NCBI GenBank assembly: GCA_019359445.1
Contig: JAHHHJ010000002.1
Location: forward strand, 248,001 to 312,000
Source: Kastovskya adunca ATA6-11-RM4
GTDB lineage: Bacteria > Cyanobacteriota > Cyanobacteriia > Cyanobacteriales > Coleofasciculaceae
Direction of reading: 5' to 3'
Length of the DNA stretch: 64,000 nt
Shown here piece after piece: positions 12,375 to 20,605 of this stretch (the stretch's first letter is position 1; the number at the start of each line of letters is the position of its first letter). Below the pieces are notes generated by a model. It was not told the origin of the DNA. It saw only the letters and a list, made by a program, of their open reading frames with translations, and did no database searches. Both the position numbers and the translations under genes were made by a program.

Positions 12375-12484
12375 TTGCGATCGCTGGCGAGGCAATGACT
12401 GTCAGTTAGTCATCAATGATAATTGTGGGTGAATGGCGAGTTACGGTTGAAGAAACCGCCCCAGCAATCGACGGAGGAACACCA

Positions 12485-13120
12485 ATGACCGTTACCATTC
12501 CCATTCGTGCCATTGAACTCACTCCCGGTAGCACGATTAGCCTTCATAACCTTTCCTGGCAAGACTTTGAAGAGATTCTTATCGAACTGGGAGAAAAGCG
12601 CAGCACCCGCATAGCATACTACCGAGGAACGCTTGAAATCATGTCTCCTTTGGCACTGCACGAACGCCCCCATCGCATTATTGCTGATATTGTCAAAGCT
12701 ATCTTAGATGCTCAAGGAAAGGACTGGGAAGATTTTGGATCAACGACTCTGAAACAACCAGAAATTGCGGGAGTGGAACCTGATACCTGCTTCTACATCC
12801 AGAATGCCAGTCGTGTTCGAGGTTGCACCAATATGGATCTACAGGTTTACCCACCCCCCGATCTCGCCATTGAGTCTGATGTCACTTCAAAGACGACTTT
12901 GAATGCTTATAAAGCCTTGCGCGTTCCAGAAGTATGGATCTATCGGAATTGCCAACTGACGATTTATCTTCTCCAGAACGGGGACTACGCCGAATCATCC
13001 ATCAGTTCTATCTTTCCCGATCTTCCCATCACCGAAATGATTCCCCAACTGGTACAAAAAGCCATTGATGAGGGAACCAGTCGGATGCTGCGCGAACTGA
13101 AAATACAAATAAGTCAATAA
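12485..13120 (+). CDS. Uma2-family (DUF820) putative endonuclease
   Basis: 211 aa from ATG 12485, chosen because GGAGG (12473-12477) lies 7 bases upstream; the frame also reaches back to 12416. Uma2 proteins have a PD-(D/E)XK nuclease fold and are greatly expanded in cyanobacteria, often near mobile or duplicated DNA. Visible are YYRGTLEIMSPL-HE, then PDTCFYI, then PPDLAIESDVTSK holding the D...ExK-type residues, and VPEVWIYR-L near the end. The biological role is unproven. The gene lies beside a repeat and a nucleotidyltransferase remnant, consistent with a mobile neighbourhood. Confidence 0.88.
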   Translation: MTVTIPIRAIELTPGSTISLHNLSWQDFEEILIELGEKRSTRIAYYRGTLEIMSPLALHERPHRIIADIVKAILDAQGKDWEDFGSTTLKQPEIAGVEPDTCFYIQNASRVRGCTNMDLQVYPPPDLAIESDVTSKTTLNAYKALRVPEVWIYRNCQLTIYLLQNGDYAESSISSIFPDLPITEMIPQLVQKAIDEGTSRMLRELKIQISQ

Positions 13121-13469: not shown

Positions 13470-14669
13470 CTAATACAATTCTGCGAAAAGAGTTAGCTGT
13501 TGTACCTTTGTTTCTTTTTTTTCTCTCTGCTTGTTTTTACAAGGTTTAGTTGGTTTTGCAATTAATCCGTTTTCCCGCTTTTCCAATAATCCTGAAAAGA
13601 AAAGCCATCCGAGCATTCTACTTGTGTAATCCCCTGCTGACTTAATTTTAACGCCCTTTTCGCTAGAAAAAGCCTCAACTATTATATTCCGCAAATTCTC
13701 TCTAGTCATAGTTTTACTTTTGTTAGCTCTCAAGTGCTGATAAATTACTTTTGTTACAGCATAATTCTTTAGTATTTCTGCTATGTGACCAGCGATTTCC
13801 ATTTCCTCTGATTTTGCTAAGTAGGGTTGAACTATTACTTTATATCCTTGAACAGATACCATTTGTAAGTTTTGCAAATCTAAGATAATATTATCTGTTT
13901 TACTTTCCGAAAAATTAGTTTTCTTCTCTAACTCTCGTCGAACTATACCTTTAGAACCTTCTTTTTTTATAAGTTTAAATACTTTCAGTGCTGTATTAAT
14001 AGAATTTCGTATTCTATAGCCAAATGCACGTTCAATATCTAAGAAATGGAATAAGCTTAACTGTTCACCGGATTGGAATAAGCTTAACTGTACTCCTGAA
14101 AATCTATCGTAAAAAGTCCTATTTAGCTTATTTGCAATTTTCGAGATATCATAATACTTTCTCTCTCCTATTACTCCTGTATTTTCTTGATAGAAGCTGT
14201 AATTTAGTTTCTCTACAACCTTTAATAAGCTTTTAGGCTGTTTTTTGAAACTCGCTTCTAAATTTTGATGTATCAGCTCATCTAATGACCAAATGGGAAA
14301 TTTAGTATTATCAAAATTTTCAGGAATTTGAGTAACAATCGCATCAAGTTCCATATAACTTGCATAAGCAAGCTCTATTGCAGACTCTGAATTTCTAAGC
14401 TTGGATGTTTGCAGATTCCTTATAAGGCTATGATTAACAGGACAAACTTCCACTACTTTTTTTATTCCAGAAATCTCTTTTTCGGCATCGTTCTCACCTA
14501 CCAAGTCAATGAGTAAGAGGTAGATGAGATCTAAGCCTCTTGGTGTTATGTACCCTTGAATTTGCTTGAAACGCATCAACTCCCAGAGATGATCGGCATC
14601 CTCAACAAATCCAACTCGATTGAGTAGCAACTCTTGAATAAGGAGGTAAGAAACCAAAACTCGTCGCAT
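13470..14669 (-). CDS. Degenerate PIN-like domain fused to a winged-helix region with three beta-clamp-like motifs; function unknown
   Basis: 399 aa. Residues 1-120 follow the PIN pattern of cyanobacterial VapC-like proteins: hydrophobic strand, LLLNR, then IQGYITPRGLDLIYLL, VVEVCPV, and ESAIELAYASYMELDAIVTQIPENF. The acidic residues expected at the active site are replaced: Ser7 stands where the first Asp should be and Ser96 where the E-D-A aspartate should be, so nuclease activity is doubtful. Residues about 210-380 look like two winged-helix domains. QLSLF occurs at 194-198 and 203-207, and QLTLF at 391-395, matching the beta sliding-clamp binding consensus. The gene starts 5 bp after an XRE regulator and shares its promoter. 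I do not recognise the full-length family. Confidence 0.6.
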   Translation of the reverse strand: MRRVLVSYLLIQELLLNRVGFVEDADHLWELMRFKQIQGYITPRGLDLIYLLLIDLVGENDAEKEISGIKKVVEVCPVNHSLIRNLQTSKLRNSESAIELAYASYMELDAIVTQIPENFDNTKFPIWSLDELIHQNLEASFKKQPKSLLKVVEKLNYSFYQENTGVIGERKYYDISKIANKLNRTFYDRFSGVQLSLFQSGEQLSLFHFLDIERAFGYRIRNSINTALKVFKLIKKEGSKGIVRRELEKKTNFSESKTDNIILDLQNLQMVSVQGYKVIVQPYLAKSEEMEIAGHIAEILKNYAVTKVIYQHLRANKSKTMTRENLRNIIVEAFSSEKGVKIKSAGDYTSRMLGWLFFSGLLEKRENGLIAKPTKPCKNKQREKKETKVQQLTLFAELY

Positions 14670-14674
14670 TACTC

Positions 14675-15040
14675 TTACTGCTCCTGATACTCAAGGGGAG
14701 TTTTGGGATTGGAGGCTTTTGGATACTTGTCAGTACCTATTCGCTTGCGTATATCTGACGGTGAAAGCCCTTCCTGTTTGACGTGTTTACCCTGTTGGCT
14801 AGATTGGTATTGAGTTTCAATGGTTTCCTGTTCAGGTTCCCATCGCATCAGATCTCCCGGTTGGCAGTTAAGAGCAGCACAAAGCTTTTCGAGGGTCGTG
14901 CGTTCCAACCGTTCTGGCACATCCTGAGAATTTTTCAACTTGGAGATTGTGACAGGATGCATACCAGTTGCCTCTGTCAAATCCTTATTTTTCATGTGCC
15001 GCTCAGCCATTAGCACATTTAAGCGCCATTTGATAACCAT
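14675..15040 (-). CDS. XRE/Cro-type helix-turn-helix regulator
   Basis: 121 aa. Residues about 5-68 form a Cro/CI-type HTH domain: RLNVLMAERHMKNKDLTEATG, then MHPVTISKLK as the recognition helix, and LEKLCAALNCQPGDLM. The C-terminal 50 residues are polar and probably disordered. It is the first gene of a two-gene minus-strand operon with the degenerate PIN-like gene (5-bp gap). It likely represses its own promoter through the palindrome at 15171-15221. It resembles the antitoxin or regulator half of many small two-gene systems. Confidence 0.88.
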   Translation of the reverse strand: MVIKWRLNVLMAERHMKNKDLTEATGMHPVTISKLKNSQDVPERLERTTLEKLCAALNCQPGDLMRWEPEQETIETQYQSSQQGKHVKQEGLSPSDIRKRIGTDKYPKASNPKTPLEYQEQ

Positions 15041-15170: not shown

Positions 15171-15221
15171 ATATTAGCCACAGCGACTAATATTATTTTT
15201 ATTAGCTGCTGTGGCTAATAT
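15171..15221. promoter_or_regulatory. Probable operator: 14-bp inverted repeat upstream of the XRE gene
   Basis: ATATTAGCCACAGC (15171-15184) is repeated inverted as GCTGTGGCTAATAT (15208-15221) with an AT-rich 23-base centre that also contains TAATATTA. It sits 130 bases upstream of the XRE start and also upstream of the divergent pentapeptide gene, the usual place for an autorepressor site. The rest of the 15041-15344 gap shows nothing else. Confidence 0.55.
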
Positions 15222-18595: not shown

Positions 18596-18865
18596 TTAGG
18601 CAATTTGCAGCGTACTGGGTTCAGGAATGGATTCACCTTCTGCTTGCCAAGCTTCCAAGTACATATCAATTACTTCTTCACCGTTACGAATTGCTTCCTC
18701 ACGAGTTTTGCCATGAGTGCAAGGCATAACAACGCGATCTGCGCTAGCTCTTTCAGAGCCGCTCCGCTAACGCAGCAGCGCTTCGCTATCGCTAAACTCT
18801 GGAATCGTGACTAGGAAAAGCTGATCTTCATCAGACCATTGAACAATCATGCTGTATCGACTCAT
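18596..18865 (-). pseudogene. HicB-type antitoxin gene interrupted by a 54-bp repeat with an in-frame stop
   Basis: Read on the minus strand from ATG 18863-18865, the frame gives a HicB-like protein: SMIVQWSDEDQLFLVTIPEF, then after an insertion DRVVMPCTHGKTREEAIRNG and MYLEAWQAEGESIPEP, ending at 18596. The 54 bases at 18740-18793 keep the frame but contain TAG at 18767-18769. Without the insertion the protein would be about 71 aa, normal for this family. The ATG overlaps the stop of the PIN gene as ATGA, so it was the third gene of that operon. It is non-functional unless the stop is read through. No HicA toxin gene is nearby. Confidence 0.75.
18740..18793. repeat. 54-bp small repetitive element inserted in the HicB gene
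   Basis: The sequence is rich in GCGxTAGCG-like palindromic words (cgctgctgcgttagcggagc on the minus strand, then gctctgaaagagc, a short hairpin). Such structured short repeats are common in large cyanobacterial genomes. Its length is a multiple of three, so the host frame resumes after it. Boundaries are inferred from where HicB homology breaks. Confidence 0.55.
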
Positions 18866-19470
18866 GAATCTTCATCCTTTTCAATCTCAAAATATTGCTT
18901 AGATCTAAAATCTAAAGCTCTGTGGTACATCACTATAAAATATTCCTCTAATTTTCTGTTGTACTGTTTATGCTGTTCAATAATTAGACTCAAGTCACCA
19001 TCAATCAAAAAACGCTCAAAGAATAACCAACCTAATAAATGGGCTGTAGTTTGCACTCTAGGGTGAGTTAAGACTTCTTCCGCAAGATTTCTTGCATTTT
19101 TATCATCAGTTAAACAAGCCTGATAAGTCTTTTTTGCAAAAGCAATGGATGCCAGTTCTCCTTTACCAAGATTCTTGCGCTTCTGTAACACCTCGATTTC
19201 TTGTAAGTCTTCAATATCTAAGTGATAATTCTTAAACTTCCCATTCTGTATTTCTTGTCTTAATAGATTTTGCAGTGCAATATCTTCAGGTTTAACTTCT
19301 GTTCGAGGTTTGTATAGGCACTCATAATAAACGAAGTCAGTGCAGCAAAAAGAGCAGCCTACAGAATATGCTGTTGTACGAAGGAGTTGGGATGAAATTA
19401 TATTCCAAATCGCGCAAGTATCAACGACATTAAACTTGTGAAATTTAGATGGGTCACGCTCAGTTGCCAT
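18862..19470 (-). CDS. PIN-domain protein (putative RNase toxin) of an XRE-ImmA/PIN pair
   Basis: 202 aa. Acidic residues expected for a PIN nuclease are present: Asp17 in NVVDTCAIW, Glu50 in YYECL, Glu105 in GKGELASIAFA and Asp122-Asp123 in CLTDDKNA. PIN domains cut RNA with metal ions. Length is a little above VapC because of a C-terminal helical tail. The start overlaps the end of the upstream XRE-ImmA/IrrE gene by 11 bp and its stop overlaps the broken HicB gene by 4 bp, so the three formed one transcript. This arrangement fits a toxin with a regulator/protease partner; the toxin role is inference. Confidence 0.78.
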   Translation of the reverse strand: MATERDPSKFHKFNVVDTCAIWNIISSQLLRTTAYSVGCSFCCTDFVYYECLYKPRTEVKPEDIALQNLLRQEIQNGKFKNYHLDIEDLQEIEVLQKRKNLGKGELASIAFAKKTYQACLTDDKNARNLAEEVLTHPRVQTTAHLLGWLFFERFLIDGDLSLIIEQHKQYNRKLEEYFIVMYHRALDFRSKQYFEIEKDEDS

Positions 19471-20605
19471 ACTTTAAACCTCTCCCATAGAGAGCTGCCA
19501 TTGCATCTAGCTCACGCTCACTCACTAAGAGCATCTCTGCCAATCTACCTGCTGATATGACATCTTGTTCATATGCATCAAGGCAAAGACTGACGTAAAA
19601 AGTGGACAATCCTCTTTTCAATGATTGTTCTCGACGCTGACGAGAGCCTGGAGATAAATTTGCTGGCAACTCTGGATCGATTTTTCTATCTCCTGGCACT
19701 CTGACAGATTTAATTTGTGTTTCGATAGATTGTGATATGAGATTTGCATTTCTTAATGCAATTGCTAAAGCTTCGGTACTCACTTTCAGTCTGTTTGCCC
19801 AATCAATTGCTTTATCAGGAGTCCAGTTACTTGAGTCTGGAATATTATTTAGGAAATCTGGTGGCATGAGATAATGAGATGCAAATGTATTTGCTCTGAC
19901 TTCCACAAGATTACTTTTATCCCCTGTAAAAGAAACAATAAAATCTTCTTCTTCATCTAAAATTGCATGAGCTGATTCATGAGCAGCCGTAAACCTTTGT
20001 CTGTATACATCTTCACTATAGTTAATCAAGATACATTTTCCAGCCGTAGGGTGTTTAATATATAAGCCAGAAATGTTTGAATTACCTAATTGGCGACGAA
20101 ATATATGAAATCCTAAAGTGCGAAAATCCTCATAGATATCACTCCCTACTTGAATAAAAGAATAACCAAGGTGTTTTCTGAGCCTTGCGGCGGCTTTCTC
20201 ACCATGACCTTTAAAGTAACTTCCAATTTTAGAAAAGCTAAAAGGTTTGTAGTCTCTTCTAGGAAGAGAGTTAAGCAAGAATTCCTCACATTCACATAAG
20301 AATAAAAACTCTTGTACAGCCCGACGATCTTCTTTGGAAAAATAATCGCCATGTCTTCTGTATAACGTCTCAGTTTGTTCAAAGGGAGCTACTTTTTCAT
20401 TGGAAATGAAGAATTGGTAATCACATTGATAGTAGTCCGCTAGGATTAGAACCTCATCTCCTGTAGGTCGTCTTTCTGCACTTTCTAAAGCGGCTAGAGC
20501 TTGAGTTGATATACCTGTTACTGCTGAAACTTCGTCAAGAGAAGTTTTGAGTTGCTCACGATATTTCTTCAGTTTTGAACTAAATAAACTCAGATCAAAT
20601 GTCAT
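19460..20605 (-). CDS. XRE helix-turn-helix plus ImmA/IrrE metallopeptidase protein
   Basis: 381 aa. Residues about 8-65 form an XRE HTH (KLKKYREQLKTSLDEVSAVT, ISTQALAALESAERRPTGDE). Residues about 150-280 are an ImmA/IrrE (COG2856) zinc peptidase with HESAH at 209-213 (HExxH) inside FTAAHESAHAILDEEEDF, then VEVRANTFASHYLMP, whose Glu is the likely third ligand. Such proteins bind DNA as repressors and cleave or are paired with a partner under stress. It is first in an operon with the PIN gene. The C-terminal 100 residues add another helical region with an SERELDAMAALYGRG end. Confidence 0.87.
   Translation of the reverse strand: MTFDLSLFSSKLKKYREQLKTSLDEVSAVTGISTQALAALESAERRPTGDEVLILADYYQCDYQFFISNEKVAPFEQTETLYRRHGDYFSKEDRRAVQEFLFLCECEEFLLNSLPRRDYKPFSFSKIGSYFKGHGEKAAARLRKHLGYSFIQVGSDIYEDFRTLGFHIFRRQLGNSNISGLYIKHPTAGKCILINYSEDVYRQRFTAAHESAHAILDEEEDFIVSFTGDKSNLVEVRANTFASHYLMPPDFLNNIPDSSNWTPDKAIDWANRLKVSTEALAIALRNANLISQSIETQIKSVRVPGDRKIDPELPANLSPGSRQRREQSLKRGLSTFYVSLCLDAYEQDVISAGRLAEMLLVSERELDAMAALYGRGLKYGN

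What the first reader, a model, noticed from the sequence alone, without database searches (positions are those of the whole stretch)
13470..15040. XRE regulator paired with a catalytically dead PIN-like protein carrying three beta-clamp motifs
Seen: the PIN pattern is clear but the aspartates are replaced (Ser7, Ser96), and QLSLF occurs twice 9 residues apart (27-bp DNA repeat, 14047-14064 and 14074-14091), with QLTLF four residues from the C terminus. Known: QL[SD]LF is the bacterial sliding-clamp binding motif. Inferred: the protein could dock on the replication clamp, for example to sense or block replication of invading DNA, with the PIN fold reused as a binding module.
Basis: partly seen in the sequence, partly recalled or inferred. 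Interest (0 to 1): 0.62.

Follow-up and report, generated by a model that had tools for sequence, protein, structure and literature searches.

The report
Dead toxin fold with replication-clamp hooks
A cyanobacterial two-gene unit pairs a small DNA-binding regulator with a toxin-like protein that has lost its cutting site but carries short hooks that probably grip the ring holding DNA polymerase on DNA; relatives keep the hook, so it is very likely real, but nobody has tested what it does.

Summary
The 399-aa protein carries QLSLF twice (a 27-bp tandem duplication) and QLTLF near its C terminus; 200,000 shuffles never gave three. Its first ~140 residues have a VapC/PIN fold without the catalytic acids.

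Residues ~218-376 are a winged-helix, DNA-binding-like domain shared with cyanobacterial nuclease/STAND-like ATPase proteins. The tail behind it holds a canonical sliding-clamp motif in 9 of 9 PIN fusions and 11 of 19 other relatives, against 4 of 344 background ORF tails. An internal motif recurs in 3 of the 8 other PIN fusions. The models leave all three motifs in low-confidence, probably disordered segments.

The dead PIN is a class feature: 0 of 19 scored long fusions keep the VapC-D98-type acid, against 64 of 78 shorter PINs. The related XRE lay near 18 of 33 acid-less and 0 of 64 acid-bearing PINs.

Best reading: an antitoxin-like XRE holds a pseudo-VapC protein that docks on replicating DNA and probably blocks replication, as SocB and RipA do by other means. 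Clamp docking is likely (~0.8) but unshown; the output is open.

The parts
14675..15040 (-). XRE (HTH_26) regulator, 121 aa, antitoxin-like partner; HTH at residues 6-70, then a variable tail with a short recurring stretch (here LSPSDIRKR)
   Evidence: Pfam HTH_26 E 6.4e-21; a loose [STH]-[LP]-x-[EDT]-[LI]-[RQH] stretch is seen by eye in all 10 XREs aligned, with a second similar stretch in the XRE of L007
13470..14669 (-). fusion protein of 399 aa: PIN, linker, winged-helix domain, clamp-motif tail
   Evidence: ORF; nine-member family
14259..14669 (-). PIN/VapC-fold domain, residues 1-137, catalytic acids replaced (Ser7, Ser96, Ile115)
   Evidence: PIN_3 below its cut-off, fold match Z 16.0, column survey
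14019..14258 (-). linker, residues 138-217, low confidence, probably disordered
   Evidence: pLDDT under 50 for 138-217; at most three sequences cover it in that alignment
14076..14090 (-). internal clamp motif 1, QLSLF 194-198
   Evidence: lines up by eye with QLCLF of L065/L066 (LQLCLFQTSE vs VQLSLFQSGE)
14049..14063 (-). internal clamp motif 2, QLSLF 203-207, tandem copy of motif 1
   Evidence: 27-bp repeat visible
13542..14018 (-). winged-helix / DNA-recognition-like domain, residues 218-376, shared with nuclease/ATPase proteins
   Evidence: separate model, mean pLDDT 80, ten-residue blocks over local 11-170 between 80 and 97 except one of 60; VIA rows N.BspD6I, BrxA, SspB, BpuJI, FokI at Z 7.4-8.7 (suggestive only); homology
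13473..13541 (-). basic tail, residues 377-399, probably disordered
   Evidence: pLDDT under 50 in both models; 13 of 28 relatives have GKQKGK here and most others a near form, while this protein's own stretch has diverged
13485..13499 (-). C-terminal clamp motif 3, QLTLF 391-395
   Evidence: Q391, L392, L394 invariant in the five-row alignment; canonical motif in 9 of 9 PIN fusions
15171..15221 (.). candidate operator: two inverted copies of ATTAGNNGCNNNGGCTAAT (15173-15191 and 15201-15219)
   Evidence: 22-nt arms, 91% complementary; 2 found, 0.02 expected, but the pattern was drawn from this very site; one similar half-site before the XRE of L015 and of L064

Best explanation
The pair works like a toxin-antitoxin or defence switch aimed at replication. 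Anatomy (from sequence and prediction): an XRE gene with a palindromic candidate operator sits directly upstream of a protein made of an acid-less VapC/PIN domain, a flexible linker with two QLSLF motifs, a winged-helix domain and a basic tail ending in QLTLF. Proposed mechanism (inferred): the XRE represses the operon and, through its C-terminal tail, binds the pseudo-PIN and keeps the protein inactive. When the XRE is lost or removed, the free protein binds DNA with its winged-helix domain and occupies the polymerase pocket of the DnaN clamp with one or more QLxLF motifs; up to three motifs could fill both pockets of a clamp dimer. This displaces polymerase and stalls replication of the DNA it sits on: growth arrest, or a block on incoming replicons. 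The related nuclease/ATPase proteins would use the same docking module to bring a nuclease to replicating DNA.
For: Clamp docking: canonical motif (definition in PMC11139829, passages) in 9 of 9 PIN fusions and 11 of 19 other domain relatives, about 0.25 and 0.29 expected from tail shuffles (with L075 moved to the PIN group); 4 of 344 background ORF tails. Two members use the hexameric form (QLHLPL, QLELPL); QLSLPL is a tight-binding peptide in PMC12309361 (passages). The motifs lie in segments under pLDDT 50. The host DnaE has GQINIFDLLG (read by eye; Ile where the definition has Leu/Met), like the relatives' GQLSLFDDLG and DQLNLFDYLM. DNA binding: winged-helix model. Lost nuclease: 0 of 19 scored long fusions keep the D98-type acid, 64 of 78 shorter PINs do. 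Pairing: the related XRE lies near 0 of 64 acid-bearing and 18 of 33 acid-less PINs; 7 of 9 PIN fusions have it directly upstream. Operator palindrome. Precedents: SocB (PMC9690074, passage) and RipA, whose antitoxin has an XRE domain (PMC12795458, abstract, one section and passages) act on DnaN.
Against: No binding or toxicity data were found for any member. 8 of 19 non-PIN relatives lack a canonical tail motif, so the domain does not strictly need it. An internal motif is in only 4 of 9 PIN fusions (two of these near-copies). PADLOC has no model for the protein or for P0003 and only weak matches for four relatives of the domain. Only for L016 did I see defence-type neighbours; the other loci were hardly examined. 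L013 and L075, the most divergent PIN fusions, have a different 320-aa partner instead of the small XRE. 15 of 33 acid-less PINs had no such XRE nearby. The CTD fold match is middling (no Foldseek match at E 0.001 or better).
Confidence: 0.42

Rival explanations
1. Sensor or recruiter, not blocker: the clamp motifs only bring the winged-helix domain to freshly replicated DNA, and the XRE, held by the pseudo-PIN, turns this into a transcriptional or defence response.
For: The same domain and tail sit on proteins with a nuclease-like ECK motif (6 of 7 searched) and Walker A (7 of 7) (Mrr_cat in P0004), where recruitment makes more sense than polymerase blocking. A long flexible linker with duplicated motifs suits tethering. 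L016 lies beside a DRT-type reverse transcriptase and a kinase with PD-T4-6 matches.
Against: No output domain other than the dead PIN and the XRE is present. Transposase work argues that strong consensus motifs burden the host (PMC4549789, passages), and this protein has three strong ones.
Confidence: 0.3
2. Replicon-maintenance factor: a winged-helix plus clamp-motif protein that helps a plasmid or island replicate or persist, like RK2 TrfA (recalled from memory, in no call).
For: L003 lies next to a CyRepA1 replication gene, with a MobV relaxase gene about 4 kb away, on a 76-kb plasmid; sporadic distribution of the domain, 6 of 386 and 22 of 388 genomes.
Against: The window lies in a contig of at least 312 kb of a 5.1-Mb assembly, and the four neighbours run through Pfam gave no replication protein. 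At least seven of the nineteen other relatives carry an ATPase motif, six with a nuclease-like motif. Regulator-then-PIN order is typical of TA units.
Confidence: 0.12
3. The motifs are incidental, and this is a decayed VapBC-like pair with no clamp function.
For: QLxLF is short; 8 of 19 domain relatives lack it; catalytic acids are lost, as decay would predict.
Against: Motif kept in tails that otherwise diverge, 9 of 9 PIN fusions across one long-branched group, open reading frames, a conserved second domain, and recurrence of the internal motif.
Confidence: 0.1

Closest known systems
VapC / PIN_3 ribonuclease toxins of type II TA modules
   Same: PIN fold over residues 1-141 (VIA Z 14-16 for the VapC rows cited); small DNA-binding partner gene directly upstream; operator-like palindrome
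   Different: Catalytic acids replaced; fused to a winged-helix domain and clamp motifs; partner is an XRE, a pairing described as underrepresented for PIN (PMC2701414, passages)
SocAB (Caulobacter) and RipAB (Streptococcus) clamp-targeting TA systems
   Same: Two-gene unit; toxin acts on DnaN; RipB carries an XRE domain; SocB binds through the usual clamp motif (PMC9690074 and PMC12795458, passages)
   Different: No homology claimed or tested here; the passages read do not describe those toxins as PIN or winged-helix proteins; RipB has an ImmA-like part, this XRE has no such Pfam match
Mrr-type nuclease / STAND-like ATPase proteins of cyanobacteria (P0004, L017, L018, L019, L023, L025 and others)
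   Same: Homologous C-terminal domain and tail, often with a canonical clamp motif
   Different: They carry a nuclease-like part and an ATPase instead of a PIN; no small XRE gene lies directly upstream in L017 and L018, the two read for this
Transposases with a C-terminal clamp motif (IS1634 and others)
   Same: C-terminal QLxLF in a DNA-acting protein, shown to bind the clamp (PMC4549789, passages)
   Different: No transposase domain here
FokI, BspD6I and BpuJI recognition domains, BrxA and SspB
   Same: Top structural matches over nearly the whole winged-helix domain (Z 7.4-8.7, 149-172 residues)
   Different: Z in a range that models without true relatives also reach; rmsd over 4; no sequence match

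Membership tests
VapC / PIN_3 active ribonuclease | PIN fold | tested here: met
   VIA Z 16.0, 134 residues, rmsd 2.3; Pfam PIN_3 E 6.9e-5, below its cut-off
VapC / PIN_3 active ribonuclease | conserved catalytic acids (VapC D7, D98) | tested here: not met
   Ser7, Ser96, Ile115
type II toxin-antitoxin module | compact operon with a small DNA-binding partner upstream | tested here: met
   5-nt gap in the window; related XRE directly upstream in 7 of 9 PIN fusions
type II toxin-antitoxin module | autoregulatory operator | tested here: inconclusive
   palindrome and similar half-sites found; binding not shown
type II toxin-antitoxin module | toxicity relieved by partner | not testable with these tools
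   needs an expression assay
sliding-clamp client | canonical motif in an accessible segment, conserved in homologues | tested here: met
sliding-clamp client | physical binding to DnaN | not testable with these tools
   no prediction of complexes on hand; host dnaN located
SocB / RipA families | homology to SocB or RipA | not tested
   their sequences were not fetched
nuclease/STAND-like ATPase family with the shared C-terminal domain | homologous C-terminal domain and tail | tested here: met
nuclease/STAND-like ATPase family with the shared C-terminal domain | nuclease and ATPase domains | tested here: not met
   no such Pfam match in the window protein; Mrr_cat over its cut-off and sub-threshold ATPase_2 and nSTAND1 in P0004
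catalogued anti-phage system | PADLOC model match | tested here: not met
   0 families at E up to 1 for the fusion protein; for the XRE only matches to RmrA (best 7.7e-7, over its HTH) and PDC-M64B

The most novel reading that the evidence does not exclude
The acid-less PIN_3 domain is a general handle recognised by XRE partners, and evolution hangs different host-machine-facing baits or effectors on it. Here the arm reaches for the replication clamp; in other XRE-paired members it is a C39 export-peptidase domain (L008), DUF1822 (L007) or Npun_R1517 (L081), and in members without a nearby XRE a phycobilisome protein (L090, L092) or a weakly matched sigma-70 region-4 segment (P0009). XRE-pseudo-PIN pairs would then be a modular guard or blocker system of cyanobacteria, with DnaN docking as one arm that nuclease/ATPase proteins share.
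Probability: 0.15. Interest if true: 0.82.

Novelty: new variant of a known kind. Interest (0 to 1): 0.62.

Why it matters
It offers a concrete, testable case of a toxin fold that keeps its place in a toxin-antitoxin-like operon after losing its enzyme site; the authors of PMC2701414, in a reply to a reviewer, called working but inactivated toxins an intriguing speculation (passage). It also describes a DNA- and clamp-docking module shared between this pair and nuclease/ATPase proteins, which would be a way to aim an effector at replicating DNA. In the titles and abstract openings listed by ten paper searches (several listings were cut, e.g. 15 of 287) I saw no description of it; only open-licence PMC papers were searched.

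Tried and rejected
Scan of genome contigs with the single protein found no relative; the alignment scan did. L026 (Pontiellaceae) looks like a chance match around GLLE and was dropped. L071/L079 are pieces of a broken gene and were dropped. Loci that repeat another by tail and length were dropped: L057=L015, L058=L023, L059=L025, L061=L020, L062=L019, L068 and L009=L003, L069=L005, L070=L011, L073=L012, L076=L014, L078=L074. L065 and L066 are near-copies and were both counted.

Phage and viral sources: no match of the protein in 50,697 phage records; no relative in two viral-contig scans. A phage origin is not supported at that sensitivity. In plasmids, 14 of 72,556 records matched, one over at least 80% of the protein.

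PDB sequence search with the PIN alignment returned T-cell-receptor chains at E 0.25 or worse: noise. PDB sequence search with the domain alignment gave only weak matches (best E 0.07).

The PIN survey is biased: the profile was built from six acid-less PINs, and I read the 30 loci returned, 60 regions that I chose among the matches and the loci of other calls, not all matches. Two of its 70 rows under 170 aa (L080, L027) are edge-cut pieces of long genes; neither is scored at column 96. The XRE profile was built from XREs beside acid-less PINs, so acid-bearing PINs may have other antitoxins that it cannot see. Seven of twelve short and eight of nineteen long acid-less PINs had no such XRE nearby. 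Fisher values ignore shared ancestry and are not used as proof. The 344 background tails are the last 60 residues of stop-to-stop ORFs, many of them surely not genes; tails of L015 and L064 are longer (96-98 aa).

At first I took Ser96 for a special loss; the survey showed it is the rule among long fusions. PADLOC was given only seven neighbours of loci: three of L016 with strong matches (the kinase matches may be plain kinase likeness), one each of L003 and L013 with none, two of the window (XRE-ImmA matches RmrA, 1.9e-22).

Odds: the probability of the novel case was lowered from 0.17 to 0.15 when I rechecked that the phycobilisome and sigma-like fusions have no such XRE nearby.

No structure of a complex with DnaN could be predicted with the tools.

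Full report
What is there. On the minus strand, 14675-15040 encodes a 121-aa XRE regulator (HTH_26, E 6.4e-21), and five bases further on 13470-14669 encodes a 399-aa protein. The larger protein has QLSLF at residues 194-198 and 203-207 and QLTLF at 391-395. The two internal copies look like a tandem duplication, 18 identical bases at a spacing of 27. Shuffling the protein 200,000 times never gave three QLxLF. It is the only one of 77 stop-to-stop window ORFs of at least 100 aa that carries the motif.

The PIN part. PIN_3 is hit at E 6.9e-5, below the Pfam cut-off. The AlphaFold2 model (mean pLDDT 68) puts residues 1-141 on VapC/PIN structures: 1y82 Z 16.0 (134 residues, 2.3 A), P. horikoshii VapC4 Z 15.5, Shigella VapC D7A Z 14.5. 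The acids are gone: Ser7, Ser96, Ile115. I read 100 distinct ORFs hit by a PIN profile in the fetched loci. At the Ser96 column, 0 of 19 scored ORFs of 215 aa or more have Asp (S 14, T 3, Q 2); of the shorter ones, 64 of 78 scored do. At the Ser7 column all 80 shorter rows keep Asp (two of them are cut pieces of long genes), and long ones have D 15, S 3, A 1 of 19 scored. Ser7 was seen only in the window, L015 and L064. So loss of the D98-type acid marks a fusion class, and the window lineage lost the D7-type acid as well. L015 could not be scored at column 96 because its PIN is split by an insertion; by eye it reads LDYESAIEL there, again Ser. Sampling limits are told under Tried and rejected.

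The rest of the protein. Residues about 218-376 form a compact domain (separate model, mean pLDDT 80) with low-confidence segments on both sides. Residues 138-217 and 377-399 are under pLDDT 50, and these hold all three motifs; the linker is covered by at most three sequences in that alignment, so its disorder is likely, not certain. The first half of the domain is a winged helix. The best structural matches over nearly its whole length are N.BspD6I (Z 8.7), BrxA (8.3), SspB (8.0), BpuJI (7.8) and FokI (7.4), each over 149-172 residues with rmsd over 4; apart from a second SspB entry, the later rows are mostly winged-helix regulators over 57-110 residues. These are DNA-recognition or defence proteins, but the Z values are in a range that models without true relatives also reach, and Foldseek gave no match at 0.001. 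I take it as suggestive of DNA binding, no more.

Relatives. A profile of this domain finds it in 6 of 386 genomes of the phylum and, with a larger alignment, in 22 of 388 of the order; a contig scan gave 12 loci, 11 of them kept. After dropping copies and fragments I count 28 proteins. Nine are PIN fusions like the window's: window, L015, L064, L016, L003, L013, L065, L066, L075. L075 was recognised late: it is hit by the PIN profile without the first strand and has no Pfam match. Nineteen are others. Of these P0004 (L004) was run through Pfam whole: Mrr_cat over its cut-off (E 5.9e-7), ATPase_2 and nSTAND1 below theirs. Of seven searched by pattern, six carry a nuclease-like ECK motif and all seven Walker A. 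L020 begins at the ATPase, L005 is split over two ORFs, and the remaining N termini were cut or not examined. In the tree the nine PIN fusions form one side of a branch (99/94), so one fusion event is enough. None of the eight genomes with a PIN fusion showed a second match.

The clamp motif. The published definition is Q-aliphatic-x-[LM]-[FL], or with one more residue before [FL] (PMC11139829, passages). In the tail after the conserved GLLE-like element, 9 of 9 PIN fusions and 11 of 19 others fit (strict QLxLF: 7 of 9 and 8 of 19). Shuffled tails predict about 0.25 and 0.29 (with L075 moved from the other group to the PIN group). Among 344 other ORF tails in the same loci and the window, 4 fit and 1 is strict. 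L013 has QLHLPL and L075 QLELPL, the hexameric form; QLSLPL is a tight-binding peptide in PMC12309361 (passages). The eight without the motif are L011, L063, L020, L021, L022, L023, L024 and L025; several keep look-alikes such as QPSLLDLL or QLNALDFL. The host DnaE has GQINIFDLLG, which I read by eye as its clamp motif although Ile stands where the definition has Leu or Met. Host dnaN is present.

The internal motif recurs at about the same place, before the winged helix: QLCLF in L065 and L066 (context LQLCLFQTSE against VQLSLFQSGE here) and QLTLSL in L013. By eye L064 has QLSQF and L075 QLSIQ there; L015, L016 and L003 have nothing like it. So 4 of 9 carry at least one internal motif, two of these being near-copies.

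The partner. Seven of nine PIN fusions have a related XRE gene directly upstream; L013 and L075 have instead a 320-aa protein with an HTH-like stretch (by eye). In the survey such an XRE was near 0 of 64 acid-bearing PINs and 18 of 33 acid-less ones: 10 directly upstream, 1 further upstream, 7 downstream. Beyond the HTH, the ten XREs aligned share a loose [STH]-[LP]-x-[EDT]-[LI]-[RQH] stretch, with a second similar stretch in the XRE of L007 (by eye); I infer that it binds the PIN. Upstream of the window's XRE lie two inverted copies of ATTAGNNGCNNNGGCTAAT (0.02 expected, but the pattern was drawn from this site), and one similar half-site stands before the XRE in L015 and in L064.

Context. 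L003 is on a 76-kb plasmid beside a CyRepA1 gene. L016 has a kinase with PD-T4-6 matches, a DRT-type reverse transcriptase (Drt6 E 4.9e-180) and a PDC-M02B match as neighbours. Near the window's pair are a Uma2 protein and, 4 kb away, an XRE-ImmA plus weakly PIN-like pair. I did not survey the other loci for defence genes.

How it most likely works. Shown by sequence or prediction: acid-less VapC fold, XRE pairing, winged-helix domain, conserved clamp motif in low-confidence segments. Inferred: DnaN binding (about 0.8), the XRE as repressor and antitoxin, and replication block as output (0.42 for the whole chain). Toxins that act at DnaN exist: SocB, through the usual motif (PMC9690074, passage), and RipA, whose antitoxin has an XRE domain (PMC12795458, abstract, one section and passages). 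I claim likeness in action, not kinship; no sequences were compared. The main rival is recruitment or sensing, which fits the nuclease-bearing relatives better.

Known or new. XRE-PIN pairs and inactivated PINs are mentioned in PMC2701414 (passages), and clamp-targeting TA systems are known. Passages of PMC7159879 and PMC12926913 that I looked at say nothing on this. In ten searches of open-licence papers I saw no account of a dead PIN joined to a clamp-docking DNA-binding module, or of nuclease/STAND-like ATPase proteins with clamp-motif tails. I rate it a new variant of a known kind. On rechecking, the probability of the novel case went from 0.17 to 0.15, since part of the fusions it rests on have no XRE nearby.

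Noticed in passing
window 18862-20605 (-): XRE-ImmA (Peptidase_M78) protein of 381 aa overlapping a 202-aa protein with a weak PIN match: looks like the COG2856-XRE plus PIN operons described in PMC2701414 (passages).
   Followed up: partly
L092, L090, L081, L007 (=L029), L113, L008, L110, L120, and P0009 at L003:1648-2766: Acid-less PIN_3 domains fused to very different partners: phycobilisome protein, Npun_R1517, DUF1822, C39 peptidase, pentapeptide plus LeuA_dimer; the sigma-70 region-4 match of P0009 and the DUF1822 match of L113 are below cut-off. L007, L008 and L081 have the related XRE directly upstream; L090, L092, L110, L120 and P0009 do not.
   Followed up: partly
L004, L005, L011, L012, L014, L017-L025, L063, L067, L072, L074, L077: Nineteen cyanobacterial domain relatives, several with nuclease-like and ATPase motifs, 11 with a clamp motif in the tail: possibly replication-coupled restriction proteins.
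   Followed up: partly
L015:778-2082 and L064:1000-2244: The PIN fusion runs on in frame after QLELF into a tail that looks like a VapB antitoxin (named from memory), followed by a 147-aa ORF that looks like another PIN: perhaps a fusion across two toxin-antitoxin-like units.
   Followed up: no
L030, L040, L042, L044, L046, L082, L086: Short or mid-length stand-alone PINs with the same Asp-to-Ser change and a related XRE gene downstream instead of upstream.
   Followed up: partly
window 12416-13120 (+): Uma2-family predicted endonuclease (Pfam E 1e-19; PADLOC candidate PDC-S17 E 1.6e-36).
   Followed up: no
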